Assembly: GCA_022566215.1 (NCBI GenBank)
Contig: JADFJJ010000008.1
Coordinates: forward strand, 1 to 55,658
From: Pseudomonadota bacterium
GTDB taxonomy: Bacteria; Pseudomonadota; Alphaproteobacteria; Sphingomonadales; SMXR01
Direction: 5' to 3'
Length of the DNA stretch: 55,658 nucleotides
Part shown: positions 3,891 to 19,042 of the stretch, in pieces
Layout: every line of letters begins with the position of its first letter
How positions within the stretch are numbered: the stretch's first letter is position 1
Position numbers and translations under genes: made by a program
The notes under the pieces: model-generated
What the model was told of the DNA's origin: nothing
Seen by the model: the letters and a program-made list of their open reading frames with translations, nothing else
Database searches by the model: none

Positions 3891-5171
3891 TTAAGCCGGT
3901 TTCTTGGCCTTGGCGGGTTTTCCGGAATAGATATAAAGCGGCTGGGCGTTGCCGAACACCACTTCGCCGCTGATCACCACTTCCTCGACGTCTTTCAGGG
4001 ACGGCAGTTCGAACATGGTGTCCAAAAGAATGTTTTCCATGATCGAGCGCAGGCCGCGGGCGCCGGTTTTCCAGGCCATCGCCTTCTTGGCGATTGCTTT
4101 GAGGGCCTCCCCGGTAAAGACCAGCTGCACGTTTTCCATCTCGAACAGCCGCGCGTACTGCTTGATCAGCGCATTTTTCGGCAGGGTCAGGATTTTCACC
4201 AGGGTTTTCTCGTCGATATCCCCGAGCGTCGCCAGGATCGGCAGGCGGCCGACGAATTCCGGGATCAGGCCGAATTTCAAAAGATCCTCGGGCTTAAGCT
4301 CCTTCAGCAGCTCGCCGATCTTGCGCTCGTCCGGGGCCTCGACCTTGGCGCCGAAGCCCATCGACTTGTCCTGCATCCGGTTGGAGATAATCTTGTCCAG
4401 CCCGGTAAAAGCGCCGCCGCAGACAAACAGGATGTTGGTGGTGTCGACCTGCAGGAATTCCTGCTGCGGGTGCTTGCGCCCCCCTTGCGGCGGGACGCTG
4501 GCCACGGTCCCTTCCATGATCTTGAGTAGCGCCTGCTGCACCCCCTCACCCGAGACGTCCCGGGTGATAGAGGGGTTGTCGGACTTGCGGCTGATCTTGT
4601 CCACTTCATCGATGTAGACAATACCCCGCTGGGCTCGCTCAACATTATAATCAGCCGCCTGCAGCAGTTTCAGGATGATGTTTTCCACATCCTCACCGAC
4701 GTACCCGGCTTCGGTGAGGGTAGTGGCATCCGCCATGGTAAAGGGAACATCCAAAATCCGCGCCAAGGTCTGGGCCAGCAGCGTCTTGCCGCAGCCGGTC
4801 GGACCGACCAGCAGAATGTTGGATTTGGTAATTTCGACATCGCCGGCCCGGCCGGAATGATTGAGGCGCTTGTAATGGTTATGGACGGCGACCGCGAGAA
4901 CCTTCTTGGCCTTGTCCTGGCCGATCACATAATCATCCAGCACCGCCATGATCTCGGCCGGGGTCGGAACCCCCTCGCCGGCCTTGACGATGCCCGATTT
5001 ACTCTCTTCCTTGATGATATCGGTGCAAAGATCGACGCATTCGTTGCAGATAAAGACGGTCGGCCCGGCGATCAGTTTGTTGACCTCATGCTGGGACTTG
5101 CCGCAGAACGAGCAGTAAAGGGTCGAGGACCCCTTGGAGTCGTTTCCGTTATTGCCGCTATCTTTAGCCAT
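3891..5171 (-). CDS. clpX: ClpX, ATPase/unfoldase subunit of ClpXP
   Basis: Hexameric AAA+ unfoldase that recognises degradation tags and feeds proteins into ClpP in the cytosol. 426 aa, the normal family length. An N-terminal C4 zinc-binding domain (YCSFCGKS and [10 protein letters not shown], about residues 19-50) is followed by Walker A GPTGCGKT (~120), the GYVGED pore-loop region, Walker [10 protein letters not shown] (~185) and a C-terminal sensor-2 domain with GARGLRS. It lies downstream of clpP on the same strand with a 166-base gap, so it may have its own promoter. Identification is certain. Confidence 0.98.
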
Positions 5172-5337
5172 AAACCTTAACTTTTATTTGCCATTACTTG
5201 GATTTTATTGTGTCTCAATTGTTTTTTACATGAAATTCGTTAGCAAAACCTTAAAAGATCATATTTTTCGCCGCTGATGCAGCCATGGTAGCCAGAATAT
5301 TCCCTCCGGCACAATAAAAAATTGCGGCGCTCAAGGG

Positions 5338-5973
5338 TTATTTGTCAGATTTTCTTTGTGCGTCTTCGCGTTTATTGACCACTTTGTCGATCAGCCCGAA
5401 GGCTTTGGCCTCTTCCGGGCTCATGAACTTGTCGCGGTCCAGCGCCTTTTCCACGTCGCTCAGTTTCTGGCCGGTGTGATGAACGTAGATATTGTTCAGG
5501 CGCTCCCTGAGCTTGAGGATTTCCTGGGCGTGAATCTCGATATCCGAAGCCTGGCCGCGGACCCCGCCGTGGGGCTGGTGAACCATGATCCTGGAATTGG
5601 GAAGGGCGTAGCGCATGCCCGCCTCGCCGGCCGCCAGCAGCAAGGAACCCATCGAAGCCGCCTGGCCGATGCACAGGGTCGCGATCTTGGGCTTGACGTA
5701 TTGCATGGTGTCGTAAATCGCCAGGCCCGCCGACACTACCCCGCCCGGCGTGTTGATGTAAAAGGAGATGTCTTTCTTGGGATTTTCGGCCTCGAGGAAA
5801 AGAAGCTGGGCGGTCACCAGGGAAGCGACATAATCATCCATTGCGCCGGTCAGGAAGATAATGCGCTCCTTCAAAAGGCGCGAGTAGATATCCAGCGCGC
5901 GCTCGCCGCGGTTGGTCTGCTCGATCACCATCGGCACCAGGTGCTGGGCTTTTGCTATGTCATAGTCGCTCAT
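5338..5973 (-). CDS. clpP: ClpP, serine peptidase subunit
   Basis: Tetradecameric barrel peptidase that partners ClpX (and ClpA). 211 aa. The catalytic Ser is in [14 protein letters not shown] (about residue 105), the His in [10 protein letters not shown] (about 130) and the Asp in the [13 protein letters not shown] segment (about 178). All are present and spaced as usual. The start ATG at 5971-5973 follows AAGGAAAACC, a good ribosome site. It lies 42 bases downstream of tig, so tig-clpP are likely co-transcribed. Confidence 0.98.
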
Positions 5974-6015
5974 GGTTTTCCTTTTCGCTTGAGAATAGCC
6001 TAAAAATTCCGTCCG

Positions 6016-7491
6016 TCACTTCTTTTTTGACTTTGCCCCCGGCGCCGCTTTCTTTTTTGCCGCAGTTTTTTTGGGGGCGGCTTTTTTAGCGGCGGCTTTT
6101 TTTGCCGGTTTCTTTTCCACCTTGTCTTCAGCCTCCGCCGCATCCTCGGCTTCCATCGCCTCATAAGCCTTGGCCAGCTGATCACTGGTGACGGTCTTCT
6201 CGGTCACCTTGGCGGCGGTCAAAATCAAATCGACCACCTTGTCTTCATAGACCGGCGCGCGGGCGCTTTGAACGGCCTGGGCGTTGCCGCGGTAATAATC
6301 GAATACTTCCTGCTCCTGGCCGGGGAAACGTTTGGCCTCGAACAGGATCTGCTGGTTAACCTCTTCCTGGCTGACAATCACGTTGTTGGCCCGGCCAATC
6401 TCCGCCAGCAGCAGCCCCAGGCGCACCCGGCGCTCGGCAATGTTCTTGAAGTCTTCACGGTCGGCCTGGTCCTCGGGCTGGTCCAGTTTTTTAGCCTTCT
6501 CGGTCGAAAGCTCGCCGCTATGGATCAGATCCTCGCGGATGCTTTTCCAGATTTCCTGGTATTCACGCTCGACCATGCCAGGGGGGACGTCGAAGACGTT
6601 CTCGGCCGCCAGCACGTCCAGCAGCCGGCGCTTGATCATCGAGCGCGTAAGGCCATCGTTGTCATCCTTGATTTTCTTGCTGATGCTGGCTTTCAGCTCG
6701 TTCAAATCACCAAAGCCGAGCGACTTGGCAAACTCGTCATCGGCCTTGGTTTGCTTGCGGGTGCGGACCGATTTGACCGTCACCTCGAACTCGGCATCCT
6801 TTCCGGCAGCCCCTTCTATATTGTAGTTTTCCGGAAAGGTCACCTTGACCACACGCTGATCCCCGGCCCGGGCGCCGGTCAACTGATCCTCAAAACCCTC
6901 AATGAACGAGCCCGAACCCAGCTCCAGATGGAAATCCTCAGCCTCGGCGCCCTCGAACGGCTTGCCGCCGATCTTGCCGAGGAAGTCGATCACCACCGCG
7001 TCACCCTTCCTGGCGGCGCGGCTCTTGGGGGCGTCTTCAAACAATTTTTGCTGGGCCAGCAGGCCGTCCAGCACCTTGGTCACGGTCTCATCACCGGCTT
7101 TGGCGGTCAGGCGCTCCAATGAAATTTTCGACAGATCCGGGACCGTGATCTCGGGCAGGACGTGAATATCCAGCTGGAACTCCAGGTCACAGCCTTCCTC
7201 GTATTTGATCAGGTCGACACTCGGCCGGTCCGCGGTCTGGATGTTGTTGTCCTTGACCACCTGGTCGGCGGCGGTGTTGACCATCTTCTCCAGCACCTGG
7301 CTGCGGACCGCCGGGCCGTGCTGCTTTTTGAGCAGCGAAACCGGGGCGTGGCCGGGGCGGAACCCTTTAAGATTGATCCTGGTTTTCAGGCCTTCCAGTT
7401 CGGCGTTGATCTGGTCTTCGACGTCCTTGGCGGCGACCACCACCTTGTAGGACCGGGTGAGACCTTTAATGTTCAGTTCTTCGAATTTCAT
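6016..7491 (-). CDS. tig: Trigger factor, ribosome-associated chaperone
   Basis: Binds the ribosome exit tunnel and holds nascent chains. 491 aa: ribosome-binding N domain with the FRPGHAPVSLL signature loop (about residues 44-54), an FKBP-type prolyl isomerase domain (about 155-245, GDAVVIDFLGKI and GSFIEGFEDQL), and a helical C-terminal chaperone domain. The C-terminal ~40 residues are an extension of Lys, Ala and Pro (for example KKPAKKAAAKK). Such basic tails occur in alphaproteobacterial trigger factors and may add RNA or ribosome contacts. First gene of tig-clpP. Confidence 0.97.
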   Translation of the reverse strand: MKFEELNIKGLTRSYKVVVAAKDVEDQINAELEGLKTRINLKGFRPGHAPVSLLKKQHGPAVRSQVLEKMVNTAADQVVKDNNIQTADRPSVDLIKYEEGCDLEFQLDIHVLPEITVPDLSKISLERLTAKAGDETVTKVLDGLLAQQKLFEDAPKSRAARKGDAVVIDFLGKIGGKPFEGAEAEDFHLELGSGSFIEGFEDQLTGARAGDQRVVKVTFPENYNIEGAAGKDAEFEVTVKSVRTRKQTKADDEFAKSLGFGDLNELKASISKKIKDDNDGLTRSMIKRRLLDVLAAENVFDVPPGMVEREYQEIWKSIREDLIHSGELSTEKAKKLDQPEDQADREDFKNIAERRVRLGLLLAEIGRANNVIVSQEEVNQQILFEAKRFPGQEQEVFDYYRGNAQAVQSARAPVYEDKVVDLILTAAKVTEKTVTSDQLAKAYEAMEAEDAAEAEDKVEKKPAKKAAAKKAAPKKTAAKKKAAPGAKSKKK

Positions 7492-7651
7492 TGGTCTGCT
7501 CTTACTTTTTTCATTGTTCTTGCAGCTGGCTTGCTTCGGTTCCCGCTTGGTCCGGCTTCGTTCTTTAAACTTCGCCGGACAGGTTCGCTCTAATCTCGCT
7601 ACGACCCACTAAACTGAACGGCTGGCCAGGCGTAGCTCGAAGAGCGAAGCC

Positions 7652-7737
7652 TGGTGCGGGCGGAGGGATTTGAACCCCCACGTCGTAAAGACACTGGCAC
7701 CTAAAGCCAGCGCGTCTGCCAGTTCCGCCACGCCCGC
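7652..7737 (-). tRNA. tRNA-Leu (anticodon TAG)
   Basis: On the minus strand the acceptor GCGGGCG pairs with CGCCCGC and is followed by A and an encoded CCA. The anticodon stem CTGGC / GCCAG encloses TTTAGGT, giving anticodon TAG. A long variable arm (TGTCTTTACGACGT) marks a class II tRNA, and the T-arm reads GGTTCAAATCC. 86 nt with CCA. It lies upstream of tig. Confidence 0.95.
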
Positions 7738-8466
7738 TTATTTGGGGTAAAAACGGGGTAAATCCCGCATCTTTACCAAGCCTTACATTCGCCGTCAGGC
7801 ATATCGGGTGAGCCTATACCACACCTCTTTGAAAAAACACCAGTTTTTTTGTCGGGGATTTCATTATTTGTCATGCCCGATTCAGCCTATCCGCCATAGC
7901 CCCTCGCCTCGGCGAAGCTGTAGCTTCGCTACGGTCTAGCCTGGAAAGCGGGTATGACAATGAATGTGTTTTTTTGTCGGGGATTAGGGAAAAGATTTCA
8001 GAACTTTTGGCAGCGCCTCGATCAGGTCATCGGCGATCCGGGGGTTTTAGTAATTATTCCCTTGTCACCCTCACCCTACCCTCTCCCATTTTTTTTCGCT
8101 CACGCAAGATAGCCTCTGGCTATCGCTCCGCGGGGGCGGCGAACGGTCGCCGGGCGCACGCTTGTGCGCCGGGAGGTTATCATGAATTTCCGAGGCTAAT
8201 TGAGCCGAGGCAAGGGCAACTGCCCGTCGCGCATCGTTGCGCGCCCACGCGGAGCCGTGAGCAAAGCTCACTGGCGTGAGCGATAAAGAGAGAGGATTGA
8301 GGTGAGGGGGTGGAAAAAGAGTAATTGTCATACCGGCTTAAGGCCGGTATCCGGCAATTGTTTGCGCCACGCGCAAACCTTAAAAAAACAAAAGCCCAGA
8401 CCCCCGCCTGCGCGGGGGTGACAGTCCGGTGGTCATATCTGCGAAAGCAGGTATGGCAAATAGAAT
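7738..8466. other. Repeat-filled intergenic region between tRNA-Leu and nnr
   Basis: No gene is supported in 729 bases. It contains GTCATGCC...GGGTATGAC repeat remnants (about 7870-7960), a ~225-bp dispersed element (8065-8290) and a row of perfect hairpins: ATACCGGC / GCCGGTAT (8330-8350), TTTGCGC / GCGCAAA (8361-8377) and CCCCCGC / GCGGGGG (8401-8418). None has a T-run, so they read as genome repeats rather than terminators. Confidence 0.6.
8065..8290. repeat. Dispersed ~200-bp non-coding repeat, copy 2
   Basis: Same block order as 3681-3885: a CACCCTACCCTCTCCC tract, TTTCGCTCACGC, an internal CGCGCATCGTTGCGCGCCC, and at the right GTGAGCAAAGCTCACTGGCG with GCGTGAGCGATAAA, which is the complement of the left end. 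It has internal hairpins (GATAGCC...GGCTATC; GGCGCAC...GTGCGCC). The middle parts of the two copies differ, as if nested inserts were exchanged. Confidence 0.6.
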
Positions 8467-9930
8467 TTAGAGGCCCTTTAATGCCTCCGGAATCTCCTCA
8501 ATCAAATCATCGGCGATCAGGCCGGGGCCGAGGGAGAGCGCGGCGTCGCCGTGAAGCCAGGCGCCGGCAGAAGCCGCCAGAAATGGCGCCATCCCCTGGG
8601 TCATGAGCCCGGCGATAATGCCCGCCAGCACGTCGCCCGACCCCGCGGTCGCCAGTTGCGGGGCAGCGTGGGTGTTGATGATTGTTATCGTCCCATCGGA
8701 AATAACCGTATCGGGGCCTTTGAGCAGGACAACCGCGCCGGTCTTCGCCGCTGCCGTCTCAGCGGCCGCCACCTTGTCATCCCAGGAGAGATCAGGCCAG
8801 AGACGCTTGAACTCGCCCATATGGGGGGTCAGGACGCACTTTTCGTGAAGCGCGGCCTCGAGGCCCCCGGCATCGCCTTCAAAACTGGTCAGGGCATCGG
8901 CGTCAAGAACGCACGGCTTAGCCGTCGCCAAAACCTTAAGGACCCGCTTGCGTGTCCCCTCGCCGACCCCGTTGCCGGGGCCGATAACAAAGGCGCTGAA
9001 TTTGCCCGAGGTAACAAAGCCTGCAAATTCCTCATCATCGCCATAGCCCGCCGACATCACCGAGAGCTGTTTTTCAGCGTAGGCCAGGATTGCTTCCTCA
9101 GGCGCAAGCGTGGTTACCAGCCCGGCGCCGGTGCGCAGGCCGGCCCGCGCCGCCATCCGCGCCGCGCCGGACATACCCAAAGGCCCGCCGGCCACCAGCA
9201 GATGCCCGCGCTGGTGCTTGTGGCCGCCCTTGGCGAGCTTGGGAAAATCATCCCGCCACAACGCCGGATGGTTTTCGAAGATCCTCAAATCCACCTTCCT
9301 AAGGGCCTCCTCGCCGATACCGATGTCGACAACCTCGACCTCACCGGAAAGCTCCAGCCCGGGCATCAGCACATGCCCCCGTTTTTTGTGTGAAAAGGTC
9401 GCGGTCAGATCGGCCTTGAAGGCCGTCCCCATAACCTGCCCGGTATCGCTGGAAATACCCGAGGGAATATCGACCGCGACCCTGAGAGCATCGCTTTCAT
9501 TGGCGGCCTTGATCCATTTGGCCGCCCGGCCTTCAACCGGCCGCTCCAGCCCGGTGCCGAACAGGGCATCGACGATCACATCAAATTCGTTCAGGTCATC
9601 CGGGAATTCTCCGGTCTCCCCCTGATATTTTTCATAGGCGGTAAGCGCCGCGCAGGAATGGCCGTCGGGCAGCTTCAGGGCGGCGCATAAAACATCCCAG
9701 CCCTTCCGGCGCAATATCTCCGCCGCGACCCAGCCATCGCCGCCGTTGTTGCCGGGGCCGTTGAGAAACAGGATTTTACCGGTTTTCTTTTTTGCCAGGA
9801 TCGCCTTGGCCAGCCCCCCGCCCGCCTTGGCCATCAACGCATAGGCGGGAATGCCGGATTTAAACGCCGCGACCTCGGCGCGGATCATCTCCGCCGCCGT
9901 CAGGACCGCGTATTTGGAATCAAAGTGCAT
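8467..9930 (-). CDS. nnr: Bifunctional NAD(P)H-hydrate epimerase / ADP-dependent dehydratase
   Basis: Repairs hydrated NADH and NADPH: the N-terminal YjeF domain epimerises S/R-NAD(P)HX and the C-terminal ribokinase-like domain dehydrates the S form with ADP. 487 aa, the usual length of the fused enzyme. The epimerase motif GPGNNGGDGWVAA is at about residues 58-70. The kinase-fold domain starts at about residue 230 (KGGHKHQRGHLLVAGG) and carries LTPHMGEFKRL and the catalytic region TAGSGDVLAGIIAGL (about 430-444). The start ATG is at 9928-9930. Housekeeping gene, monocistronic here. Confidence 0.96.
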   Translation of the reverse strand: MHFDSKYAVLTAAEMIRAEVAAFKSGIPAYALMAKAGGGLAKAILAKKKTGKILFLNGPGNNGGDGWVAAEILRRKGWDVLCAALKLPDGHSCAALTAYEKYQGETGEFPDDLNEFDVIVDALFGTGLERPVEGRAAKWIKAANESDALRVAVDIPSGISSDTGQVMGTAFKADLTATFSHKKRGHVLMPGLELSGEVEVVDIGIGEEALRKVDLRIFENHPALWRDDFPKLAKGGHKHQRGHLLVAGGPLGMSGAARMAARAGLRTGAGLVTTLAPEEAILAYAEKQLSVMSAGYGDDEEFAGFVTSGKFSAFVIGPGNGVGEGTRKRVLKVLATAKPCVLDADALTSFEGDAGGLEAALHEKCVLTPHMGEFKRLWPDLSWDDKVAAAETAAAKTGAVVLLKGPDTVISDGTITIINTHAAPQLATAGSGDVLAGIIAGLMTQGMAPFLAASAGAWLHGDAALSLGPGLIADDLIEEIPEALKGL

Positions 9931-10014
9931 AAATGACGGATAGTATAAACATAGAATTGTTTTTCGCCAACAAGCGTTGGCGCGGCGACCGTTGAATCTC
10001 TATTCCCATTAGGA

Positions 10015-10725
10015 CTAGCTAATCTGGCTATTTTTCCCAAGTGGAATAGAAAAGCTACCATTACCCTCTTGCCTTATTTTTTCAGGATTGCCGATTAATG
10101 ATTTTCTGCTTCGTGCAGCCTCCTCGTCATATCCTTTGAATAAATCATGGTCGCAGGGGGAAATTATTTTTGCTTCATCATGTGTCGCATCATCGGGAAC
10201 AAAGTAAATAATTGTTTTAAAACAGTGTTCCCGGGTAATTGCCCAGAACGCTAGTAGTCTTATAACACCTTCACTAAGGCGAAAACGCCAATCCGTCGAA
10301 TATAACAAAAGGTGTATATGTGGAGTACTTGCGCTTCCATATTTTTTGGATTTAGATATTAGTTTCGACCAAACCCAATCAGCCATTTCACCGTGATTAT
10401 AGCTTGAAGAGGCAGCTTCGTATGATCCCCCAATTTTTTCTAGGGGTGCAACTTCCATGAGGTCCAAATACTCATCACCAAATTCAGTCTCAAGTGTAAA
10501 ATCAAAGTCATTTTCTTGATTTTGGGTTGGGTAGGAGACAATTTTGTAAAAAGTTCTTCCTGCTTTTCCCAATCCCTTTATAAAAAACTTAAAAATGAAT
10601 TCTTCAATTTTCGCTTTACCTTTTGGAAATTGAAGAGGCTGGAATTCTGCTGTTTTATCTTCTAGATTGATAGTAATCGGACCGATCTTGCCGGTTGGTT
10701 TCCTGTTTGACCCTGAGTTTGTCAT
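10015..10725 (-). CDS. Hypothetical protein, 236 aa
   Basis: No family recognised with confidence. The start at 10725 (MTNSGSNRKPTG) is chosen because the upstream extension of the frame runs through the GIY-YIG gene and looks non-coding. The middle has acidic strands (DFDFTLETEFGDEYLDLMEV, about residues 73-92) and a helix-rich C-terminal half with HIHLLLYSTDWRF (about 137-149). The D...E-x-x arrangement slightly recalls PD-(D/E)XK nucleases but I cannot place the core Lys. AT-rich like its GIY-YIG neighbour and unlike nnr, suggesting a transferred pair. Confidence 0.5.
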   Translation of the reverse strand: MTNSGSNRKPTGKIGPITINLEDKTAEFQPLQFPKGKAKIEEFIFKFFIKGLGKAGRTFYKIVSYPTQNQENDFDFTLETEFGDEYLDLMEVAPLEKIGGSYEAASSSYNHGEMADWVWSKLISKSKKYGSASTPHIHLLLYSTDWRFRLSEGVIRLLAFWAITREHCFKTIIYFVPDDATHDEAKIISPCDHDLFKGYDEEAARSRKSLIGNPEKIRQEGNGSFSIPLGKNSQIS

Positions 10726-10780
10726 TGAGTTGGACCTTTTAACTAGAAGAGTTTCTTCGAAGAAACACCTTTCCAGCAGT

Positions 10781-11023
10781 TTACCACAAATGTCTTTTTG
10801 CAAAAGCATGACCTGAGCCTTGCTTGATGTAAACTTCAAATTCTTTTGCCTTTTTCTTATCAGTAAAGACAATATAAGTGACAAGCTTCCAAGGTTTGAA
10901 TTTATTTGTATGAATGGAATTTCCGGAATTATGTTCAGACAATCTCTTTTTTAAATTCACGGTCAACCCGACATACTTTTCATCCGGGGAGGAAACACTT
11001 TGGATTAGATAAACATAATACAT
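10781..11023 (-). CDS. GIY-YIG nuclease-superfamily protein, 80 aa
   Basis: Single-domain GIY-YIG protein of the UPF0213/YhbQ-like size class. The family motif appears as YYVYLIQ ... EKYVGLT (residues 2-8 and 15-21), with LKKRLSEHN (about 24-32) and a C-terminal KAKEFEVYIKQGSGHAFAK (about 58-76) typical of this subfamily. The putative catalytic Arg (R27 region) and Glu (E63 region) are present. Small GIY-YIG proteins of this type are widespread and mostly uncharacterised. It may be co-transcribed with the unknown gene 55 bases downstream. Confidence 0.85.
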   Translation of the reverse strand: MYYVYLIQSVSSPDEKYVGLTVNLKKRLSEHNSGNSIHTNKFKPWKLVTYIVFTDKKKAKEFEVYIKQGSGHAFAKRHLW

Positions 11024-11034
11024 GATTAACTGCC

Positions 11035-11143
11035 CTGCGTCGCTAATCCTCCTTCGCCAAGGCTACGGAGGACAGGAGCTATGGAGGGCACTCCTGCTTG
11101 CAATTCAAGGCTACTTGGGGCGTAAGCCAGTCCGCCGTCGCTC
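11035..11143. repeat. Intergenic repeat left of the Ntn-hydrolase gene
   Basis: GC-rich imperfect repeat that shares the 18-base block GCCAGTCCGCCGTCGCTC (11126-11143) and the AGGAGCTATGG...GCAATT.AAG pattern with the copy at 12240-12360. It occupies the 287-base gap before the gene at 11311. Confidence 0.6.
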
Positions 11144-11310
11144 TTTCACCTTTACTTTTCAAATACTTTTCAAACTCGTCATGCTACACCGGAATTCGTG
11201 CACACCTTTAGGGAGAAAATATGTGGGATGCCGAATATCCGAATTTACTCAGCCATGTGGCATCCAGAGGAAAGGCAAGCAGGATCGATTAAAGAATATA
11301 AGGCAAACTT

Positions 11311-12225
11311 ATGACCCTCATTGTTTCCGCAAACGGACGTGAATCCATCTGGTTGCTAGCGGATCGCAGGCTTTCTTATAAGGGGCGCGATCCAAAGAAT
11401 GATGGTCGTAAAGTTATGACTCTCGAAACCCCAGATGGTGTGGCCATTCTTGGTTACGCCGGCCTTGGGGCGACGGCTTTAGGAACTGAGCCGGCCGACT
11501 GGATGAGTGCGGTACTTCGTGGCCGAAACCTCCATTTGGAACAATCGCTGGGAGTCCTTGCAAAAGCAATGAAGAAACAAATCCCCCCGCATTTATTGAA
11601 ATTACAAAATCAGGAAGCTCGAGTACATAATGTTCTAATTCCTGCTTTTCTCGAAGATAGTGTTAAGTTGTATACGATTGATCTTATTTTAAAGGGAAAA
11701 GGAGAACCCTTTGATTTTCATTTCATTCAACATGTTTCTAGTTCGCGGTCGGGGAAAATGCCACGTATTGGCATCGGTGGAAGCGGTAGACTGTTTTTGC
11801 TTAAAGACCAGAGCTGGGTTAGACCCCTGCTGCGCCTTATAAGCGCCTACGATCGTGGAAAGGTATCCGCTGGCTTGGTAGCGGATCACTTGGCAAGCTT
11901 GAACTTTAAGGTTCACAAAGGAGTTTTTGACCAGTCCGTTGGCTCCAACTGTATCGTCACTTGGCGTAATAAAAAGCCAGATTCTCACAAAGAAGGGAGC
12001 GGGCATCACTTCTATACTGAAGAAAAAAGGAATCCCGGTTCGGAAACCATACCCCAGATCGCTAATGGAATAGAAATAAACCCATTGGTTGGAGTTATGG
12101 AACCGTTTGTATCCAAAATTTTCGAGGCCATGTCGTCTGGTGGGCCCAAAAAGGAACTGAACAAGGACGAAATAAATAAGGCACTAGCACGTTTGCCAAG
12201 CAAGCCAGATGAAAATCTCCGATAG
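11311..12225 (+). CDS. Proteasome/HslV-like Ntn-hydrolase candidate, 304 aa
   Basis: After removal of the initiator Met the protein starts with Thr1. Counting from it, Asp is at 17 (LLADRR), Lys at 33 (GRKVM) and Gly at 47 in GYAG, the same register as the proteasome beta-subunit and HslV active site (Thr1, Asp17, Lys33, Gly47). This is read directly from the sequence; enzymatic activity is inference. At 304 aa it is longer than HslV (~175) or bacterial Anbu (~245), with an unknown C-terminal part after about residue 200. AAGG lies 8 bases upstream of the ATG. It is alone on the plus strand and flanked on both sides by related repeats. No HslU-like ATPase is nearby. Confidence 0.7.
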   Translation: MTLIVSANGRESIWLLADRRLSYKGRDPKNDGRKVMTLETPDGVAILGYAGLGATALGTEPADWMSAVLRGRNLHLEQSLGVLAKAMKKQIPPHLLKLQNQEARVHNVLIPAFLEDSVKLYTIDLILKGKGEPFDFHFIQHVSSSRSGKMPRIGIGGSGRLFLLKDQSWVRPLLRLISAYDRGKVSAGLVADHLASLNFKVHKGVFDQSVGSNCIVTWRNKKPDSHKEGSGHHFYTEEKRNPGSETIPQIANGIEINPLVGVMEPFVSKIFEAMSSGGPKKELNKDEINKALARLPSKPDENLR

Positions 12226-12239
12226 AGGTTCATTTTCGG

Positions 12240-12360
12240 GTGGCCTGCCAGTCCGCCGTCGCTCCTGAAGGAGCTATGGCGGGACACTCCGCTTCGCAAT
12301 TACAAGCCTTGGCGAGGGCTTGCCTCGCCGAAGCCTTGTGCGAAGGCGGGTGGTGGTGGG
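12240..12360. repeat. Intergenic repeat right of the Ntn-hydrolase gene
   Basis: Contains the same 18-base block GCCAGTCCGCCGTCGCTC (12247-12264) as the left flank at 11126, followed by GAAGGAGCTATGGCGGG and GCAATTACAAGCC. Together the two copies bracket the 11311-12225 gene as direct repeats. Confidence 0.6.
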
Positions 12361-12404
12361 TGCAGTCTAGAGCGAACCCGTCTCCGGCAAAATTTGGAGC
12401 GATT

Positions 12405-12580
12405 TCCCTATTAAACAGGGAAAATACAGGGAATTTTCGCGAATTTTAGCATTAATCGCAGTTCTGGCCCCTCTGTAACCCGCGGAGACAATGGGGTTTT
12501 CTGCTAAATTCCCTAGGTAAATTAACAGGGAATTTTTTCCGCGTATCAGGGAAATAAATCAATGGGACAGGGAATTATAT
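12405..12580. repeat. Array of CAGGGAA motifs
   Basis: Within 175 bases the motif CAGGGAA occurs five times in the same orientation (starts near 12416, 12427, 12525, 12547 and 12568), plus TTCCCT in reverse near 12404 and 12510. Spacing is irregular. No gene is visible from 12226 to 12706; this array and the repeat at 12240-12360 fill the gap. Confidence 0.6.
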
Positions 12581-12706
12581 GCATCATTCAGATGCCAGCG
12601 AAGGGCATTGTCAGGCTAAAGTGAACTGGCGTTCGGAAGGCCGCTACAGGGACCAGTGACAATTTGAATAGCCCCCATTTTATGCCTCTTAGGTTCTGAA
12701 AAAAAT

Positions 12707-13306
12707 TTAATTTGAGTTTTCGGTTTTGGATGACTTGGTTATCCATTTTGGCGGCGCATACACTTTAATCGTCACGTCATCACCGGCGTTAATGATACCA
12801 GCGACCTCGACGACGCCAACCACACCGCGGCAGTATTTAGCAGCTTTGGAAAAGGCAGTAACCCGGAGTGGTTGTCCTGAATTGGTGGTATGGATTGACG
12901 CGAGGTGTTGGCCCATTTCAAGGCATGGGGTATTGTATTCCGTCACCTCAAGCTCCGCGCCGGAGGGAAATATGAGGATCGTTCCTTTGGGCAAACGGGA
13001 CAAGTGAGGCACACCAGCGAGACAGATATTAGCACCAAGACTTGCCGCCGTTAAGGGTTCTTTCAGGTCCATTTTCTGTTGAATTTCGGCAAGTTCCTCT
13101 ACGGATACGGCTGACCACTGCCGTTCGTTGCGCCGGTTTGTACCCTCAGGTTGCTTGTCTCCCACCCAGGTTTGGCGAGAATAGGACTTGTGGCGGTCAC
13201 CCAGAAAACCGTCCAACTCGGCCTGAAGAAAGGGGCGTGGCTCCTTGCCCAAATCGTCTGGCGAGCCCAAATATACCGACATCACTTTTGCTGCGATTTT
13301 TCTCAT
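12707..13306 (-). CDS. MOSC-domain protein, 199 aa
   Basis: MOSC domains (molybdenum-cofactor sulfurase C-terminal) carry sulfur or bind pterin/Mo cofactors; stand-alone MOSC proteins such as YiiM and YuaD are poorly assigned. The sequence shows the core beta pattern: LGANICLAGVPHLSRLPKGTIL (about residues 88-109), GAELEVTEYNTPC, and the conserved Cys in KYCRGVVGVV followed by AGIINAGDDV. An N-terminal R-Q-T-W segment is typical of the YiiM-like class. I prefer the ATG at 13306; an upstream ATG at 13330 would overlap the GcvT-like gene by 11 bases. It is the last gene of the operon aminotransferase - flavoprotein - flavoprotein - GcvT, which hints at a cofactor or detoxifying role in the same pathway. 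Confidence 0.75.
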   Translation of the reverse strand: MRKIAAKVMSVYLGSPDDLGKEPRPFLQAELDGFLGDRHKSYSRQTWVGDKQPEGTNRRNERQWSAVSVEELAEIQQKMDLKEPLTAASLGANICLAGVPHLSRLPKGTILIFPSGAELEVTEYNTPCLEMGQHLASIHTTNSGQPLRVTAFSKAAKYCRGVVGVVEVAGIINAGDDVTIKVYAPPKWITKSSKTENSN

Positions 13307-13319
13307 GTTTAGTCTTTCA

Positions 13320-14525
13320 TCAATATGCATGGGGCGGCGTTGCTCGCGCCCGGGCTGGCGTCCAAAAGGGCTTTTTCCGGATAGTGCACTTGGCCACCTT
13401 GCTGGTCTGGCGCAGTTCTTTTTCGTAGTAGATTTCCGCCCAAATATCGCCTTGCAGGTATTCTGTCTTGATCATCGCCAGCGCGATGTTGGCTTTTACG
13501 ACCGGTGACCACATGGCGGAGGTGATATAGCCGATTTTTCGAGTACACCGTTTGTTGCTGTACAAATAGGCTTTTTCGGCCGGCTTATTGCCCTCAATAT
13601 CCAGCTTGGTCAATGTATACTCGGGGCCCTTGTCTCGCTCTTGTAACAGGGCGCGCCGGCCGTTGAAATGTGGTTTCTTGAAATCGACCAACCAACCCAG
13701 ATTTAACTCAAAGGGGGTCTGGTCGTGCTGAAAGTGAACCGTCTTGAGCGCTTCATTAAATTCCATTTCCGGCATGATAAATCCTGCTTCCAGCCGCGCC
13801 ATATTGGTGGCAGCCTCGCCGTAGGGTTGGATGCCATAGTCTTCGCCAGATGCATACAGCGCGTCCCAGAGGTCCAACGCCAGTTCCGGCGCGATCCACA
13901 GTTCGTAACCGAGGTCACCGGTAAATCCGGTGCGGGATACCATTAATGTGTCGCCGCTGCTGCCGTGAAAGGGGAAATGCATAATGTCATAGGGCTTGGC
14001 GGTTTCAATGCCCTCCAGCCCCAGTTTCTTCAATACCTCGCATGAGGTCGGTCCCTGAATGGACAGCGCCGCGATCCCATCGGACATATCAGTAAAGGTA
14101 ACATCATCGAAGCCAAAGGCGCTTTTCTTCAACCATCCCAGACATGGACTGCCACAGGTCAGCATAAACTTTTCAGGGCCCAATTTGAAAATGGTGCCAT
14201 CGTCAATCAACCGCCCCTCATCGGTACACCAGCAGACATAAGTGACCCGGTTTTCCATCATATTGGCAATATTACGGGTTACCATACGGTTCAACATAGC
14301 TTCGGCATCAGGGCCGCTGACGTCGTACTTCTGCATCGGGCAAATGTCGTAGGTGCCACAGGAATTGCGCACGCAGAAATACTCGTATTCCGCGTCGTAG
14401 TAATAGTCGGCGAATTTATAGCCATTCCAGCTGGACCAGGCATCGCGGAGGTTAAGCACCGCTTGCCGGGGGTGGAAATGGGTCTCCTTAAGCCGTTCGC
14501 CGGCCCAGCGGTCCTCAGTATTCAT
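13320..14525 (-). CDS. GcvT-like folate-binding protein, cassette 1
   Basis: Aminomethyltransferase-fold protein (GcvT / dimethylglycine oxidase C-domain / DmdA superfamily), 401 aa. Folate-site features are present: the Asp pair in LIDDGTIF (about residues 106-113), SIQGPTS (about 155), MVSRTGFTGDLGYELW (about 196-211), a C-terminal barrel with GRRALL, and GYITSAMWSP. Members take a one-carbon unit from an amine or sulfonium compound onto tetrahydrofolate. No gcvP or gcvH is nearby, so it is not the glycine cleavage T-protein. It lies 21 bases after flavoprotein A, in the same operon. It is a clear paralogue of the protein at 21129-22328, and both end in PFW.P.R.RATPP, a tail not needed for the fold. 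Confidence 0.88.
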   Translation of the reverse strand: MNTEDRWAGERLKETHFHPRQAVLNLRDAWSSWNGYKFADYYYDAEYEYFCVRNSCGTYDICPMQKYDVSGPDAEAMLNRMVTRNIANMMENRVTYVCWCTDEGRLIDDGTIFKLGPEKFMLTCGSPCLGWLKKSAFGFDDVTFTDMSDGIAALSIQGPTSCEVLKKLGLEGIETAKPYDIMHFPFHGSSGDTLMVSRTGFTGDLGYELWIAPELALDLWDALYASGEDYGIQPYGEAATNMARLEAGFIMPEMEFNEALKTVHFQHDQTPFELNLGWLVDFKKPHFNGRRALLQERDKGPEYTLTKLDIEGNKPAEKAYLYSNKRCTRKIGYITSAMWSPVVKANIALAMIKTEYLQGDIWAEIYYEKELRQTSKVAKCTIRKKPFWTPARARATPPHAY

Positions 14526-14546
14526 AATAGTGACCTTTCCAAGAGC

Positions 14547-16166
14547 TTATTCATCGTAGCAGTCGTCTTTGGGTACGGTGTTGGGAAGTTTCAGGTCGCG
14601 CAGAATTTCCCGGGCGGCATTGGCGCCACAAGCACAGGAGACACCGCCACCGGGATGCGTGGACGAGCCGCACATATACATGTTTTTGATCGGCATTCGA
14701 TATTGGGCATAACCGGGAAATGGGCGATTGAACAGCAGCTGGTCGATCGTCAGTTCACCCTGGAAGATATTGCCCTCGGTCAATCCCACCCCGGCCTCAA
14801 TTTCATGCGGCGTGAGAACTTCCATATGCACAATCAAGTCCTTGAAGCCTGGACTGTACCGCTCAATCTTGTCGATAACGGTTTGGCCGAACCGGTCGCG
14901 TTTCTCCGGCGTCCACGGCCCATCGGCCAATTTAGACGGGCAATATTGAATGAAATTGGACATCCAGTGCTTGCCCGGTGGCGCCACGGTGGGATCCCAG
15001 GCCGAAGGAATCACAGATTCAATAAAGGGATTGTCCGACCAACGACCGTGCTTCCAACAGTCGTAAGCGCGCTCCATGGTTTCCAGTGAGCCAACAAAAC
15101 CCTGACCCCCGCGGTCGATGTAGCGGTTATCGGGTACACCAGTAAATTTGGGCAGACCCGACAGGGCAATATTGACCTTACCGGACGAGCCACGAATTTT
15201 GAAGTTTTTGGCCTTGTCATAAATACCGGGCGGCAGGTCATTTTTATCCATGATTTGTGTGAAGGTACGCTTCGCGTCCAGGTTCGATACCACGATGCCG
15301 GCGCGCAGCTCGTCGCCGTTTTCCAAGGTCACCCCGACCGCCTTGCCATCCCGGACCAGTATCTGCTTCACGCCGGCATTGGTTCTGATCTCACCACCGT
15401 GTTCCTGACACGCACCAGCGATGGCATTGGAGATAGCCCCCATGCCGCCCCGGGCGAGACCCCAGGCTCCGATATTACCGTCGACATCACCCATCACGTG
15501 ATGCAGCAAGATGTAGGCGGATCCCGGCGAGTAGACGCCCAAAGCAGTTCCGATAATGCCTGGGCTGGCCATGGCTGCCTTAATCAAGTCATCCTCGAAG
15601 TAGTCATCGAGAAACTCTGCCGCGCTTATGGTGAAAAAGCGTATATACTCATACAATTCCTTTTCGCCCAGAGCCCAAAACTCTTTAGCCAGGAACAGCA
15701 TTTCTCGAATATCCCGCGGCCGGAAGGAGGTCGGGTCAGGGGGTGTTCGTAACAAAGTCTTACGGATCAGCTGTGCGTAGCGGGTCAGGTCAGTTTGGAA
15801 GCGAAACATCGAATCTGCGTCGTGCGGTGAGTGCCGCCTGAGTTGGTTGTAAGCCACTTCCTTAGAGTGGTAGCTCACCAAGGTTCGGCCGTCGTCGCCA
15901 AAATTCACTGTGCCGAGATAAGGCACCAGTAGCAATCCGTGCCGAGTAAGGTTGAGGTCGCGGTGTATTGTCTGACGCATCATGCTGCAAACATAGGAAA
16001 AGCTAGAGTAGGTAAATCCGCTATGCAATTCCCGCGATACCGCCGCGCCACCGATATATTCATTCTTTTCCACGACCACTACGTCCAGCCCGGCTTTGGC
16101 CAGATAGGCGGCATTGGTCAAGCCATTGTGGCCCGCGCCGATTATGATTGCGTCATACTGTTTCAT
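14547..16166 (-). CDS. PYROXD2/phytoene-desaturase-like flavoprotein A, cassette 1
   Basis: FAD-dependent dehydrogenase, 539 aa, with the Rossmann motif IIIGAGHNG at residues 7-15, VVVVEKNEYIGGAAVS (~30-45), a GGMGAIS segment (~245) and the C-terminal FAD loop MYMCGSSTHPGGGVS (~505-520). The closest recognisable family is the poorly understood PYROXD2 branch rather than carotenoid desaturases; no carotenoid genes are near. After PGGGV it reads SCACGANAA where paralogues have a GAPG-type sequence, an odd substitution near the flavin. Its ATG overlaps the stop of flavoprotein B (ATGA), implying coordinated synthesis, perhaps as a heterodimer. Orthologous in type to the protein at 23877-25493. 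Confidence 0.88.
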   Translation of the reverse strand: MKQYDAIIIGAGHNGLTNAAYLAKAGLDVVVVEKNEYIGGAAVSRELHSGFTYSSFSYVCSMMRQTIHRDLNLTRHGLLLVPYLGTVNFGDDGRTLVSYHSKEVAYNQLRRHSPHDADSMFRFQTDLTRYAQLIRKTLLRTPPDPTSFRPRDIREMLFLAKEFWALGEKELYEYIRFFTISAAEFLDDYFEDDLIKAAMASPGIIGTALGVYSPGSAYILLHHVMGDVDGNIGAWGLARGGMGAISNAIAGACQEHGGEIRTNAGVKQILVRDGKAVGVTLENGDELRAGIVVSNLDAKRTFTQIMDKNDLPPGIYDKAKNFKIRGSSGKVNIALSGLPKFTGVPDNRYIDRGGQGFVGSLETMERAYDCWKHGRWSDNPFIESVIPSAWDPTVAPPGKHWMSNFIQYCPSKLADGPWTPEKRDRFGQTVIDKIERYSPGFKDLIVHMEVLTPHEIEAGVGLTEGNIFQGELTIDQLLFNRPFPGYAQYRMPIKNMYMCGSSTHPGGGVSCACGANAAREILRDLKLPNTVPKDDCYDE

Positions 16167-17704
16167 TTGAGGATCTCGTGAGCAGCATTATGCCCCGGCC
16201 CGCCCATCAGGCCACCGCCCGGGTGGCAGCCTGCGCCGCAGAGATACAGGCCGGAAAGCGGTGTGCTGTACTGTGCGGCTTCGTATGTGGGTCGCATCAT
16301 CAGCATCTGGTCCAAAGCAAATTCAGTGTGATGCCAGTGGCCACCGGTGACATTGCAGATCTGTTCAAGGTCCAGAGGTGTCAGCAATTCCCGGTGAACA
16401 ATCTGCTCTCGTATCCCCGGTGCATAGTGCTCGATAGTGCCGATAATTCTCTCACACAGCGCTTCGCGAGCCTCATCGGTCCAACCACCCTTGAGCCGAT
16501 AAGGCACATACATAATATGGGCCGAGAGCACATGCTTCCCTGCTGGTGCAAGCGACGGATCGTGTAGGCTAGGAATTACGATTTCCATGACCGGCCGCTC
16601 TGAACTTTCTCCGTACTTGGCGTCGTCGAAGGCAAATTCGATGGCATCTAAATCCGGTGCGATAATCATTCGTCCATCAGATCGCTCAAGCCCACTAAAT
16701 TCCGGTAAACCGTCGAGCGCAAGATGTAATTTAGCCACATATCCGTCGCACCGCAGTCGCCGGATTCTGTTGCTGAACTCGATTTCGAGGTTTTGCGTAC
16801 CAACTAGTTCCAAGAAGGTTCGCTGCGGATCCGCTGACGAAACCACGCGGTCCGCCATAATCTGCTCATCATCGACCAGTTCCACACCGGTGGCGGTGAG
16901 ACCGGCCGCATTCGCCTCGATCAAGATGCGTCCAACCTTTGCGCCGGTTCTGATCTCGGCGCCAGCATCTTTCGCAGACGAGTATAGTGCCGTAATCAGG
17001 CCGCCAATGCCGCCGGCGGGTATGGCATGGTCGCCGTCGTACTCACCGCTCATGCGATAGAGCATTGTCAACACTGTGTGATTGGGCGAACGCGGTGCCA
17101 TCTTGGAGCCAATCAGTCCGTCCCAGCTAAGGACTGCCTTTAAGAGGTCACTATCGAAATTCTCATCCATAAGGTCCCGCGCCGGCAGAGCGGCAACGCG
17201 CAGGAACTCGCCCATATCGTCCTTGCCGAGCAGGCGCAGCTTGAGCCCGATCCGGGCGAAGGTCAGGATTTCCGAGAGGTTGTTATTGCCAATGCGAGGC
17301 ATGGTCTTGAGCCAAACCGGCTTCAGCACGTCGGCAAAGCGTCGCAGCAACTGGCGGTAATCAGCATAAGCGCTGGCATCGTCCGGGCTGACACCGCTGA
17401 CTGCGCCCTGCTGCACGATAACGTGATCTCCTGCGTCGCCTAGCCCCACGGTCGCCAGCGCTTTTCCCAATTTGAAACCATGGGCCTTGAGGTCGAGGTC
17501 GCGGACGATTTTCGTCGAAAACTGGCTCACAGAATGAGCGATCGATGTCTTGAAACCGGGATAAAACTCGCGCGTGGCGGCCAGGCCACCGAGGGTGTCA
17601 GCCGCTTCCAGTACCAGCACGCGCTGACCGCCTAGTGCCAGATAGGCGGCGCAAATTAGCCCGTTATGGCCTGCGCCGATTATGATTGTGTCAAAGTTTT
17701 TCAA
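16163..17704 (-). CDS. PYROXD2-like flavoprotein B, cassette 1
   Basis: FAD-dependent dehydrogenase of about 513 aa. The start is a TTG at 17702-17704, placed 7 bases after GGGAGG. A GTG further upstream directly abuts the aminotransferase stop but would put the ribosome site inside the gene. GAGHNG is at residues 10-15, VLVLEAADTLGG (~30-41), GGIGGL (~235) and a C-terminal LYLCGAGCHPGGGLMGG loop. It is more similar to the B-type protein of cassette 2 (22328-23884) than to its own neighbour A, so A and B diverged before the cassette was duplicated. Co-transcribed with the omega-aminotransferase upstream and flavoprotein A downstream. Confidence 0.88.
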   Translation of the reverse strand: MKNFDTIIIGAGHNGLICAAYLALGGQRVLVLEAADTLGGLAATREFYPGFKTSIAHSVSQFSTKIVRDLDLKAHGFKLGKALATVGLGDAGDHVIVQQGAVSGVSPDDASAYADYRQLLRRFADVLKPVWLKTMPRIGNNNLSEILTFARIGLKLRLLGKDDMGEFLRVAALPARDLMDENFDSDLLKAVLSWDGLIGSKMAPRSPNHTVLTMLYRMSGEYDGDHAIPAGGIGGLITALYSSAKDAGAEIRTGAKVGRILIEANAAGLTATGVELVDDEQIMADRVVSSADPQRTFLELVGTQNLEIEFSNRIRRLRCDGYVAKLHLALDGLPEFSGLERSDGRMIIAPDLDAIEFAFDDAKYGESSERPVMEIVIPSLHDPSLAPAGKHVLSAHIMYVPYRLKGGWTDEAREALCERIIGTIEHYAPGIREQIVHRELLTPLDLEQICNVTGGHWHHTEFALDQMLMMRPTYEAAQYSTPLSGLYLCGAGCHPGGGLMGGPGHNAAHEILK

Positions 17705-17725
17705 CTGAAGGCCTCCCTGATACAC

Positions 17726-19042
17726 TTAGCCAACGTCTTTTATGGTTTGTCGCATCAGTTCAGCGATTTTATCGATGTCGTTTTTCGTAACGATCAGTGG
17801 CGGCGCGATGGCCACCTGGTCACCGGTAATTCGAATTTTCAAACCATTCTCAAAGGCCCGCTGGAAAATAGCCCCCGAACGAGACATAGGCACCCCGTCC
17901 TTTTGTGCGACGGTCAGACCACACATCAGGCCAATATTGCGCACATCTGTAATGACATCCTCATCACCCAACGCATGTGCCATATCTTCGAAATAGCCTT
18001 CAAGCTTGCGGACATTTTCATAAACGCCTTCATTTTTGTAAATTTTCTGAACGGCGATTGCGGCTGCAACCGCCAAAGGGTGGGCTGAATAAGTATAGCC
18101 ATGGAACAGCTCAATACCTGATTTGGTCTCGTCAAGGAATGTATCGTAGATACCCTTCCTGACAGCCACCGCCCCCATGGGAACAGAGCCGTTGCTAATG
18201 GCTTTGGCGATGGTGATTATGTCCGGCGTCACACCGAAGCGTTCAGCGGCTGTAGCGTATCCAAGACGCCCGAATGCCGTGATGACCTCATCGAATATCA
18301 GGAGAATTCCGTGTTTTTCCGTAATCTCGCGCAGACGTTTCAAATACCCTTTGGGCGGAACATAGACGCCTGCCGATCCAAAAACCGGCTCAACAATCAC
18401 CGCCGCGATGGTACTGGAATCATGAAGGGCAATGATGTTTTCAAGCTCGTCGGCGTAAGCATCACACGGCTCGGGCTCGCCTCGGGAAAACGCCATGGTC
18501 TCGGGATCATAGGGAAATGGCAAATGATCTACCCCTGTCAGCAAGGTGCCAAAAAATTTGCGGTTGTTCACCATACCGCCCACCGAAATGCCCCCGAACC
18601 CGACGCCGTGATAGCCGTTTACACGGCCAATCATGCGAGTGCGTGTACCCTCGCCGCGAAGGAAATGGTATGCGGTCGCAATCTTGAGGGCGGTGTCCAC
18701 CGATTCCGAACCGGAATTGGTGAAAAAAATGTGGTTCAGGTCATCCGGCATATCGTCGGCCAGAATATTGGCCAGTTCAAACGCCGCCGGATGGCCGAAC
18801 TGGAACGGCGAGGCGTAATCAAGCTTGCCGGCCTGTTCACGGATGGCCTTCACCACCTTGGGATGATTGTGACCCAAGGCGCAGCACCAAAGCCCCGATG
18901 AACCGTCAAACACCTCGCGGCCATCGGTGGTCCGGTAATACAAACCATCGGCGCTTACGAACATGCGCGGATTGGCTTTAAACTCCCGGTTCGCGGTAAA
19001 CGGCATCCAATAGGCCGACAAGGTATCGTTTGTAAGTTTCAT
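17726..19042 (-). CDS. Omega-amino acid:pyruvate aminotransferase (class III)
   Basis: PLP enzyme, 438 aa, first gene of the cassette 1 operon. YWMPFTANREFKA, the GSSGLWCCALGHNHP segment (47-61), the NSGSESVDTALK segment (109-120), DEVITAFGRLG (251-261) and the Schiff-base Lys280 in TIAKAISNG match the beta-alanine / omega-amino acid:pyruvate transaminase branch closely. Likely reaction: beta-alanine (or another omega-amino acid or amine) + pyruvate to semialdehyde + alanine. It is divergent from spermidine dehydrogenase, whose product 1,3-diaminopropane can be converted to beta-alanine, so the two fit one route. A TGTGATCACA site lies in the shared promoter region. Confidence 0.9.
   Translation of the reverse strand: MKLTNDTLSAYWMPFTANREFKANPRMFVSADGLYYRTTDGREVFDGSSGLWCCALGHNHPKVVKAIREQAGKLDYASPFQFGHPAAFELANILADDMPDDLNHIFFTNSGSESVDTALKIATAYHFLRGEGTRTRMIGRVNGYHGVGFGGISVGGMVNNRKFFGTLLTGVDHLPFPYDPETMAFSRGEPEPCDAYADELENIIALHDSSTIAAVIVEPVFGSAGVYVPPKGYLKRLREITEKHGILLIFDEVITAFGRLGYATAAERFGVTPDIITIAKAISNGSVPMGAVAVRKGIYDTFLDETKSGIELFHGYTYSAHPLAVAAAIAVQKIYKNEGVYENVRKLEGYFEDMAHALGDEDVITDVRNIGLMCGLTVAQKDGVPMSRSGAIFQRAFENGLKIRITGDQVAIAPPLIVTKNDIDKIAELMRQTIKDVG

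What the first reader, a model, noticed from the sequence alone, without database searches (positions are those of the whole stretch)
11311..12225. Proteasome-like Ntn-hydrolase with Thr1, Asp17, Lys33 and Gly47 in exact register
Counting from Thr1 (after Met removal) the residues at 17, 33 and 47 are Asp, Lys and Gly, the latter in GYAG, which is the proteasome/HslV catalytic layout. The protein is 304 aa, longer than HslV or Anbu, has no ATPase partner here, and is bracketed by direct copies of an 18-base repeat block. It may be an unstudied self-compartmentalising or single-chain member of the family.
Basis: partly seen in the sequence, partly recalled or inferred. Interest (0 to 1): 0.72.

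Follow-up and report, generated by a model that had tools for sequence, protein, structure and literature searches.

The report
Mobile-element-borne proteasome-like threonine hydrolase
This gene encodes an uncharacterised relative of the proteasome's cutting subunit that is scattered thinly across bacteria and mostly rides on prophages and other mobile DNA, so it is probably a cargo enzyme of mobile elements rather than part of the cell's own protein-recycling machinery.

Summary
ORF 11311-12225 has one possible start (in-frame stop 4 codons upstream); after Met removal Thr1, Asp17, Lys33 and Gly47 (GYAG) are in place. No Pfam, NCBIfam, PHROG, PADLOC or PDB sequence match exists, but degenerate-motif and profile searches found six family relatives (40-55% identity), all keeping the four residues. 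With four relatives AlphaFold gives pLDDT 81/pTM 0.81; Foldseek matches Anbu and 20S subunits (E about 1e-5, probability 1.0) and Gordonia phage Nymphadora gp30 (E 2.4e-9). So it is a proteasome-like Ntn hydrolase, distinct from HslV, which the genome carries elsewhere. Four relatives lie in prophages or next to recombinases. A more distant relative, beside an integrase, links them to Nymphadora gp30 and CarolAnn gp36, between tail genes and integrase; published RNA-seq shows CarolAnn genes 34-36 expressed in the lysogen, and that phage has an unassigned second defence system. Best reading: a mobile-element cargo threonine protease, plausibly for phage exclusion (inferred). Fuchs et al. 2021 already described 22 uncharacterised proteasome-homologue subfamilies, some phage-borne; whether this is one of them could not be tested.

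The parts
11311..12225 (+). Proteasome-like Ntn hydrolase, 304 aa; Met1 expected to be removed to expose Thr1
11314..11316 (+). Codon for Thr1 (nucleophile, inferred); M-T start in every relative
11362..11364 (+). Codon for Asp17 (in LLADRRLS)
11410..11412 (+). Codon for Lys33
11452..11463 (+). GYAG motif; Gly47 = predicted oxyanion-hole glycine
11779..11787 (+). Invariant GSG (residues 157-159 counted with Met), candidate counterpart of the proteasome Ser129 loop
   Evidence: for invariance; the counterpart assignment is inference
12052..12225 (+). C-terminal extension with two predicted helices (256-275, 285-293), in the position of the H5 element of Anbu/proteasome
   Evidence: comparison from PMC8665760
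11300..11303 (+). AAGG, weak ribosome-binding site 7 nt before ATG
   Evidence: by eye
11049..11143 (.). Intergenic repeat block upstream (palindromic unit 11049-11074, 18-bp repeat 11126-11143)
12247..12318 (.). Intergenic repeat block downstream (18-bp repeat 12247-12264, unit 12269-12289)
10781..11023 (-). GIY-YIG domain protein, divergent neighbour in the same low-GC islet
   Evidence: GC
10015..10884 (-). Unknown 289-aa accessory ORF in the same low-GC islet

Best explanation
The gene encodes a proteasome-like Ntn hydrolase of a family carried as accessory cargo by mobile elements. Shown by computation: proteasome fold, Thr1/Asp17/Lys33/Gly47 in place and conserved, no sequence membership in HslV or Anbu, frequent location in prophages or beside recombinases. 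Inferred from established proteasome chemistry: methionine aminopeptidase exposes Thr1 (no propeptide), whose hydroxyl attacks a peptide bond, with Lys33 (held by Asp17) and the free alpha-amino group for proton transfer and the Gly47 amide as oxyanion hole. Inferred and less certain: subunits assemble into a ring without a dedicated ATPase, and the enzyme is expressed from the lysogen to cleave a protein involved in infection by rival phages or in prophage control. In this genome it sits in a low-GC islet without a recombinase among the neighbours examined, possibly a relic of such an element.
For: Forced M-T start and residues in register. All four residues invariant in 7 members, relatives 40-55% identical to P0001. 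AF2 on a 5-row alignment: pLDDT 80.8, pTM 0.81; Thr1 before S1, Asp17 at the end of S2, Lys33 before S3, Gly47 in S4. Foldseek: Anbu and 20S subunits, best E 1.1e-5, probability 1.0, 275 hits below 1e-3; Nymphadora gp30 TM 0.60, E 2.4e-9. Profile match to HslV starts exactly Thr1-to-Thr1, score 29.3 versus 24.7 maximum in 60 column shuffles. Context: L005 among phage genes and abutting an integrase; L006 in a P2-like prophage between tail gene S and baseplate gene J; L008 1.4 kb from an integrase; L012 beside a resolvase. Distant relative L009 beside an integrase, linked to the family (group profile: hhalign probability 91.7, score 53.3 versus shuffled maximum 23.9) and to CarolAnn gp36 (blastp E 1.4e-11); gp36/gp30 lie between tail genes and integrase. 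CarolAnn genes 34-36 are expressed in the lysogen and a second defence system is unassigned (PMC6426606). The P2 orf30 locus is a known site of acquired genes (PMC3091744).
Against: No activity, N-terminus or assembly data. Fold evidence is a prediction from a shallow alignment; TM-scores are 0.3-0.6. L007, L014 and the window copy show no recombinase nearby (L007 and L014 are on short contigs). PADLOC models do not match. Lysogenic expression is of a very distant relative, and PMC6426606 does not test gene 36. The position of proteasome Ser169 appears not to be Ser (Val210 by eye).
Confidence: 0.72

Rival explanations
1. The fold and Thr1 chemistry are right but the enzyme is not a degradative protease: a specific peptide ligase/transpeptidase (as connectase is) or an amidohydrolase acting on one substrate.
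For: Connectase, a monomeric member of the same superfamily, is a ligase (PMC8665760). No unfoldase gene was seen beside the copies examined, and the strong conservation of surface-type motifs (ADRRLS, GYAGLG, TEPxxWM) could reflect one defined substrate.
Against: The connectase signature, a two-helix insertion between S3 and S4 over the active site (PMC8665760), is absent: S3 35-40 and S4 43-50 are adjacent.
Confidence: 0.22
2. A question of classification rather than mechanism: it belongs to one of the described uncharacterised subfamilies of Fuchs et al. 2021 (DPH or RPC of Proteobacteria, or DAH of Actinobacteria and phages), so only this copy is new.
For: DPH and RPC are restricted to Proteobacteria with 37 and 79 sequences, similar in rarity to this family; DAH and RPC have C-terminal extensions; DAH occurs in phages and Actinobacteria, like the Gordonia phage relatives (PMC8665760).
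Against: RPC and PPH lack helix H2, whereas H2 (76-89) is predicted here. No direct sequence comparison was possible.
Confidence: 0.55
3. A housekeeping HslV- or Anbu-type protease of the host, without mobile-element role.
For: HslV profile match in exact register; Anbu are among the best solved structural matches.
Against: PF00227 does not match it while finding HslV elsewhere in the same genome; the Anbu profile match is no better than shuffles; the family is very rare: only the query in 399 phylum-wide genomes, and only one distant relative besides it in 385 of the class, against HslV/proteasome-family proteins in 58 of 60.
Confidence: 0.06
4. A phage structural or maturation protease that lies among tail genes because it works with them.
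For: L006 and the Gordonia phage genes lie next to tail genes; FC4 homologues carry tail-like domains (PMC8665760).
Against: In L006, CarolAnn and Nymphadora it is transcribed opposite to the neighbouring tail genes and CarolAnn genes 34-36 are expressed in the lysogen (PMC6426606); rare and variable, unlike morphogenesis genes.
Confidence: 0.08

Closest known systems
Anbu (ancestral beta subunit), PDB 5loy, 5nyw, 5nyj
   Same: Best solved structural match (E 1.1e-5, probability 1.0), M-T start without propeptide, extra C-terminal helix
   Different: No detectable sequence relation, about 60 aa longer, found on mobile elements
HslV
   Same: Thr1/Asp17/Lys33 and the glycine in register; weak profile match over residues 2-52
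   Different: About 173 aa and HslU-dependent; this genome has its own HslV on another contig; Pfam PF00227 does not hit the window protein
Gordonia phage Nymphadora gp30 / CarolAnn gp36 (annotated hypothetical)
   Same: gp30 is the best structural match overall (TM 0.60, E 2.4e-9, 289 aa); M-T start, D17; site between tail genes and integrase; CarolAnn gene 36 is in the lysogenically expressed set 34-36 (PMC6426606)
   Different: Sequence similarity to the core family is weak and confined to the N-terminal third, reached mainly through L009
PPH, AAH, RPC, DPH, DAH subfamilies (Fuchs, Alva and Lupas 2021, PMC8665760)
   Same: Uncharacterised bacterial/phage proteasome homologues without ATPase partner, some spread by phages
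   Different: PPH is about 140 residues and lacks H2; membership in DPH/RPC/DAH could not be tested because their sequences are not held here

Membership tests
Proteasome-like Ntn hydrolases (proteasome homologue superfamily) | N-terminal Thr (or Ser) nucleophile at position 1 | tested here: met
   M-T start forced by the upstream stop; conserved in all relatives. Actual Met removal not testable
Proteasome-like Ntn hydrolases (proteasome homologue superfamily) | Asp17, Lys33, Gly47 | tested here: met
   invariant in 7 of 7
Proteasome-like Ntn hydrolases (proteasome homologue superfamily) | Beta-sheet core with two pairs of flanking helices | tested here: met
   Prediction pLDDT 80.8, pTM 0.81 and Foldseek hits to Anbu/20S
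Proteasome-like Ntn hydrolases (proteasome homologue superfamily) | Thr-dependent peptide hydrolysis | not testable with these tools
   Needs purified protein
Proteasome-like Ntn hydrolases (proteasome homologue superfamily) | Ring assembly | not testable with these tools
   No complex prediction; absence of an H3/H4 insertion leaves double rings possible
HslV | Match to Pfam Proteasome model PF00227 / HslV profile over full length | tested here: not met
   profile match only over residues 2-52
Anbu | Sequence-profile match to Anbu | tested here: not met
   score 16.7, shuffled maximum 26.1
PPH (phage proteasome homologue) | About 140 residues, no helix H2 | tested here: not met
   304 aa, H2 predicted; definition from PMC8665760
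DPH / RPC / DAH | Clustering with the published reference sequences | not testable with these tools
Connectase | Two-helix insertion between S3 and S4 | tested here: not met
   S3 35-40 directly followed by S4 43-50
Known anti-phage defence proteins | Match to a PADLOC model | tested here: not met

The most novel reading that the evidence does not exclude
Prophage- and island-borne proteasome-like hydrolases (this family plus the L009/Gordonia phage group) are an unrecognised class of phage-exclusion effectors that act by Thr1-dependent proteolysis in the lysogen; CarolAnn gp36 would be a candidate for that phage's unassigned second defence system.
Probability: 0.22. Interest if true: 0.75.

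Novelty: new member of a known kind. Interest (0 to 1): 0.46.

Why it matters
Fuchs et al. 2021 reported that genome context and co-occurrence gave no clue to the function of the many new proteasome homologues. The repeated location in prophages and beside recombinases, and the bridge to a phage gene known to be expressed in the lysogen, give one group of them a concrete, testable setting: does a proteasome-like enzyme serve mobile elements in conflicts with phages? It also points to two laboratory-tractable proteins (CarolAnn gp36, Nymphadora gp30).

Tried and rejected
Pfam, NCBIfam, PHROGs, PADLOC and PDB sequence searches with the single protein: nothing. Exact 8-mer scans of genomes and viral contigs with the single protein: nothing. 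The only hits of the first phylum-wide search, L003 and L004 (E about 0.006), were checked and rejected: short, with a stop inside, overlapping other ORFs. Relatives were then found by giving the scanner alignments padded with artificially substituted copies of P0001 and P0002, only to make the patterns degenerate; the motifs kept were chosen partly from my own recollection of such proteins. Those artificial rows carry no evidential weight and were not used in any conservation, profile or fold analysis. A stricter DNA pattern in viral contigs added nothing. Single-sequence AlphaFold was useless (pLDDT 35). Plasmid and phage collections held no close relative. The idea that the 18-bp repeats are target-site duplications: rejected, because they sit inside differently arranged repeat blocks and related units occur elsewhere. 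Rfam found no RNA there. L012 carries a premature stop, so only its N-terminal half was used.

Full report
OBSERVATION. The ORF at 11311-12225 (+) encodes 304 residues. Its start is not a matter of choice: an in-frame TAA lies at 11299-11301, the three codons before ATG are not start codons, and AAGG lies 7 nt upstream (read directly). Counted from Thr after removal of Met, residues 17, 33 and 47 are Asp, Lys and Gly, the last in GYAG. Methionine aminopeptidase normally removes Met before Thr (established knowledge), so no propeptide is needed.

IS IT MORE THAN CHANCE? The single protein matches nothing in Pfam, NCBIfam, PHROGs, PADLOC or the PDB, and a first structure prediction without relatives failed (pLDDT 35). 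Relatives were found with degenerate motifs and then with profiles: L005 and L006 (IMG/VR viral contigs), L007 (Hyphomicrobiales MAG) and L008 (Pelomonas sp. KK5), L012 and L014. To get degenerate patterns I padded the query alignment with artificially substituted copies; these served only as search patterns. In the alignment of the seven natural proteins, identity to the window protein is 40-55% and Thr1, Asp17, Lys33 and Gly47 are invariant in all seven, as is a GSG at residues 157-159 (Met counted) that could be the counterpart of the Ser129 loop. The family is rare: apart from the query no member in 399 genomes of the phylum, one distant relative in 385 of the class, one further member each in 301 and 369 genomes around the Pelomonas copy, none further in 298 around the Hyphomicrobiales copy. 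PF00227 proteins, mostly HslV, were found by the same tool in 58 of 60 genomes.

FOLD. With four relatives in the alignment AlphaFold2 gives mean pLDDT 80.8 and pTM 0.81. Strand and helix order is that of a proteasome subunit: strands 4-8, 12-18, 35-40 and 43-50, helices 61-69 and 76-89, strands between 104 and 156, helices 160-181 and 187-204, strands 214-220 and 230-236, then two C-terminal helices (256-275, 285-293). Thr1 precedes S1, Asp17 ends S2, Lys33 precedes S3 and Gly47 lies in S4. The extra length relative to HslV comes mainly from the stretch around 128-151 and from the tail; there is one Ntn domain, not two. Foldseek against the PDB returns Anbu and 20S proteasome subunits (best E 1.1e-5, probability 1.0, 275 matches below 1e-3). 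Against viral models the best match is an uncharacterised protein of Gordonia phage Nymphadora (E 2.4e-9, TM 0.60, 289 aa). A profile comparison with 31 HslV sequences aligns residues 2-52 exactly Thr1 on Thr1, score 29.3 against a maximum of 24.7 in 60 column-shuffled controls; the Anbu profile does not exceed its controls. I could not read the model's coordinates, so side-chain geometry was not measured.

NOT HslV. The genome has a normal HslV on contig 88, and Pfam's proteasome model does not hit the window protein. A AAA+ unfoldase, ClpX, is in the window at 3891-5171, but in the housekeeping tig-clpP-clpX cluster, so there is no dedicated ATPase partner.

SURROUNDINGS. In the window the gene sits in an islet of lower GC (36-55%, against 56-66% just before it) between an NAD(P)H-hydrate repair gene and MOSC/GCV_T genes, with a GIY-YIG protein and an unknown ORF. 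The 18-bp repeat on either side is exact and its core is unique to these two places in the genome, but it is embedded in dispersed intergenic repeats whose neighbouring units occur elsewhere, and the two blocks are arranged differently, so I do not read it as a target-site duplication. No recombinase was seen among the neighbours examined (3891-19042); the rest of the window was not searched for one.

MOBILE CONTEXT OF RELATIVES. L005: a phage contig, the gene 10 bp after an HExxH (weakly M41/M50-like) ORF and abutting a convergent integrase. L006: a P2-like prophage, between tail gene S and baseplate gene J, opposite in strand to them; this corresponds to the P2 orf30 locus, a known locus of horizontally acquired genes (PMC3091744). 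L008: 1.4 kb from a convergent integrase of the same DUF6538 type as in L005. L012: beside a resolvase, and broken by a stop codon. L007 and L014 lie on short contigs without a visible recombinase. Thus four of six relatives are on or next to mobile elements. No random-gene control was run for this count.

BRIDGE TO PHAGES WITH DATA. A profile search also returned L009, a 318-aa protein of the same class, again next to an integrase. The group L009/gp30/gp36 is linked to the family (hhalign probability 91.7, score 53.3 versus 23.9 maximum of 60 shuffles), and L009 to Gordonia phage CarolAnn gp36 (blastp E 1.4e-11) and Nymphadora gp30 (E 5e-9). These also begin M-T and carry Asp at 17. In both phages the gene lies between tail genes and the integrase, opposite in strand to the annotated minor tail genes. 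Montgomery et al. 2019 (PMC6426606) report by RNA-seq that CarolAnn genes 34 to 36 are expressed in the lysogen, and that CarolAnn has at least two defence systems, of which only genes 43/44 are assigned. They did not test gene 36; the link to defence is my inference.

HOW IT PROBABLY WORKS. Shown computationally: fold, active-site layout, conservation, mobile context. Inferred from established proteasome chemistry: Thr1 hydroxyl as nucleophile, Lys33/Asp17 and the free amino group for proton transfer, Gly47 amide as oxyanion hole. Less certain: assembly into an ATPase-free ring (no insertion between the H3 and H4 helices forbids a double ring) and a role for the lysogen, such as degrading a protein of an incoming phage or of the host on which it depends. 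I put fold and superfamily at about 0.95, an active Thr1 hydrolase at about 0.75, a mobile-element cargo role at about 0.65, and phage exclusion proper at about 0.22.

PRIOR WORK AND NOVELTY. Fuchs, Alva and Lupas 2021 (PMC8665760) described 22 new proteasome-homologue subfamilies, noted that PPH and AAH spread with phages, and found no AAA+ partners and no telling genomic context. The window protein is not PPH (about 140 aa, no H2) and lacks the connectase insertion; membership in DPH, RPC or DAH could not be tested because those sequences are not held here. I therefore file it as a new member of a known kind, with the mobile and lysogenic context as the interesting addition.

Noticed in passing
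L065:5001-5753 (Gordonia phage CarolAnn gp35): The gene next to CarolAnn gp36 has GHG and SLSC motifs by eye, reminiscent of CHAT/caspase-like peptidases; Pfam and PADLOC give no match. If right, two protease-like genes lie side by side in the lysogenically expressed set 34-36.
   Followed up: partly
L005:4292-4990: An HExxH protein with weak M50/M41 peptidase resemblance lies 10 bp upstream of the proteasome-like gene in a phage contig, apparently in one operon.
   Followed up: partly
L012:1297-2214: A copy in a relative of Pelomonas is interrupted by an in-frame stop (pseudogene or sequencing error), beside a resolvase.
   Followed up: partly
window:11049-11074: Palindromic intergenic repeat CTCCTTCGCCAAGGCTACGGAGGACA has 9 copies (up to 3 mismatches) across the genome.
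   Followed up: partly
window:12400-12580: Non-coding stretch downstream of the gene with several CAGGGAA(A/T) repeats; Rfam finds nothing.
   Followed up: partly
L013:4264-5973: The element holding L009 has an ORF with a Walker A-like motif that looks like a primase/helicase by eye, so it may be a phage-satellite-like element.
   Followed up: no
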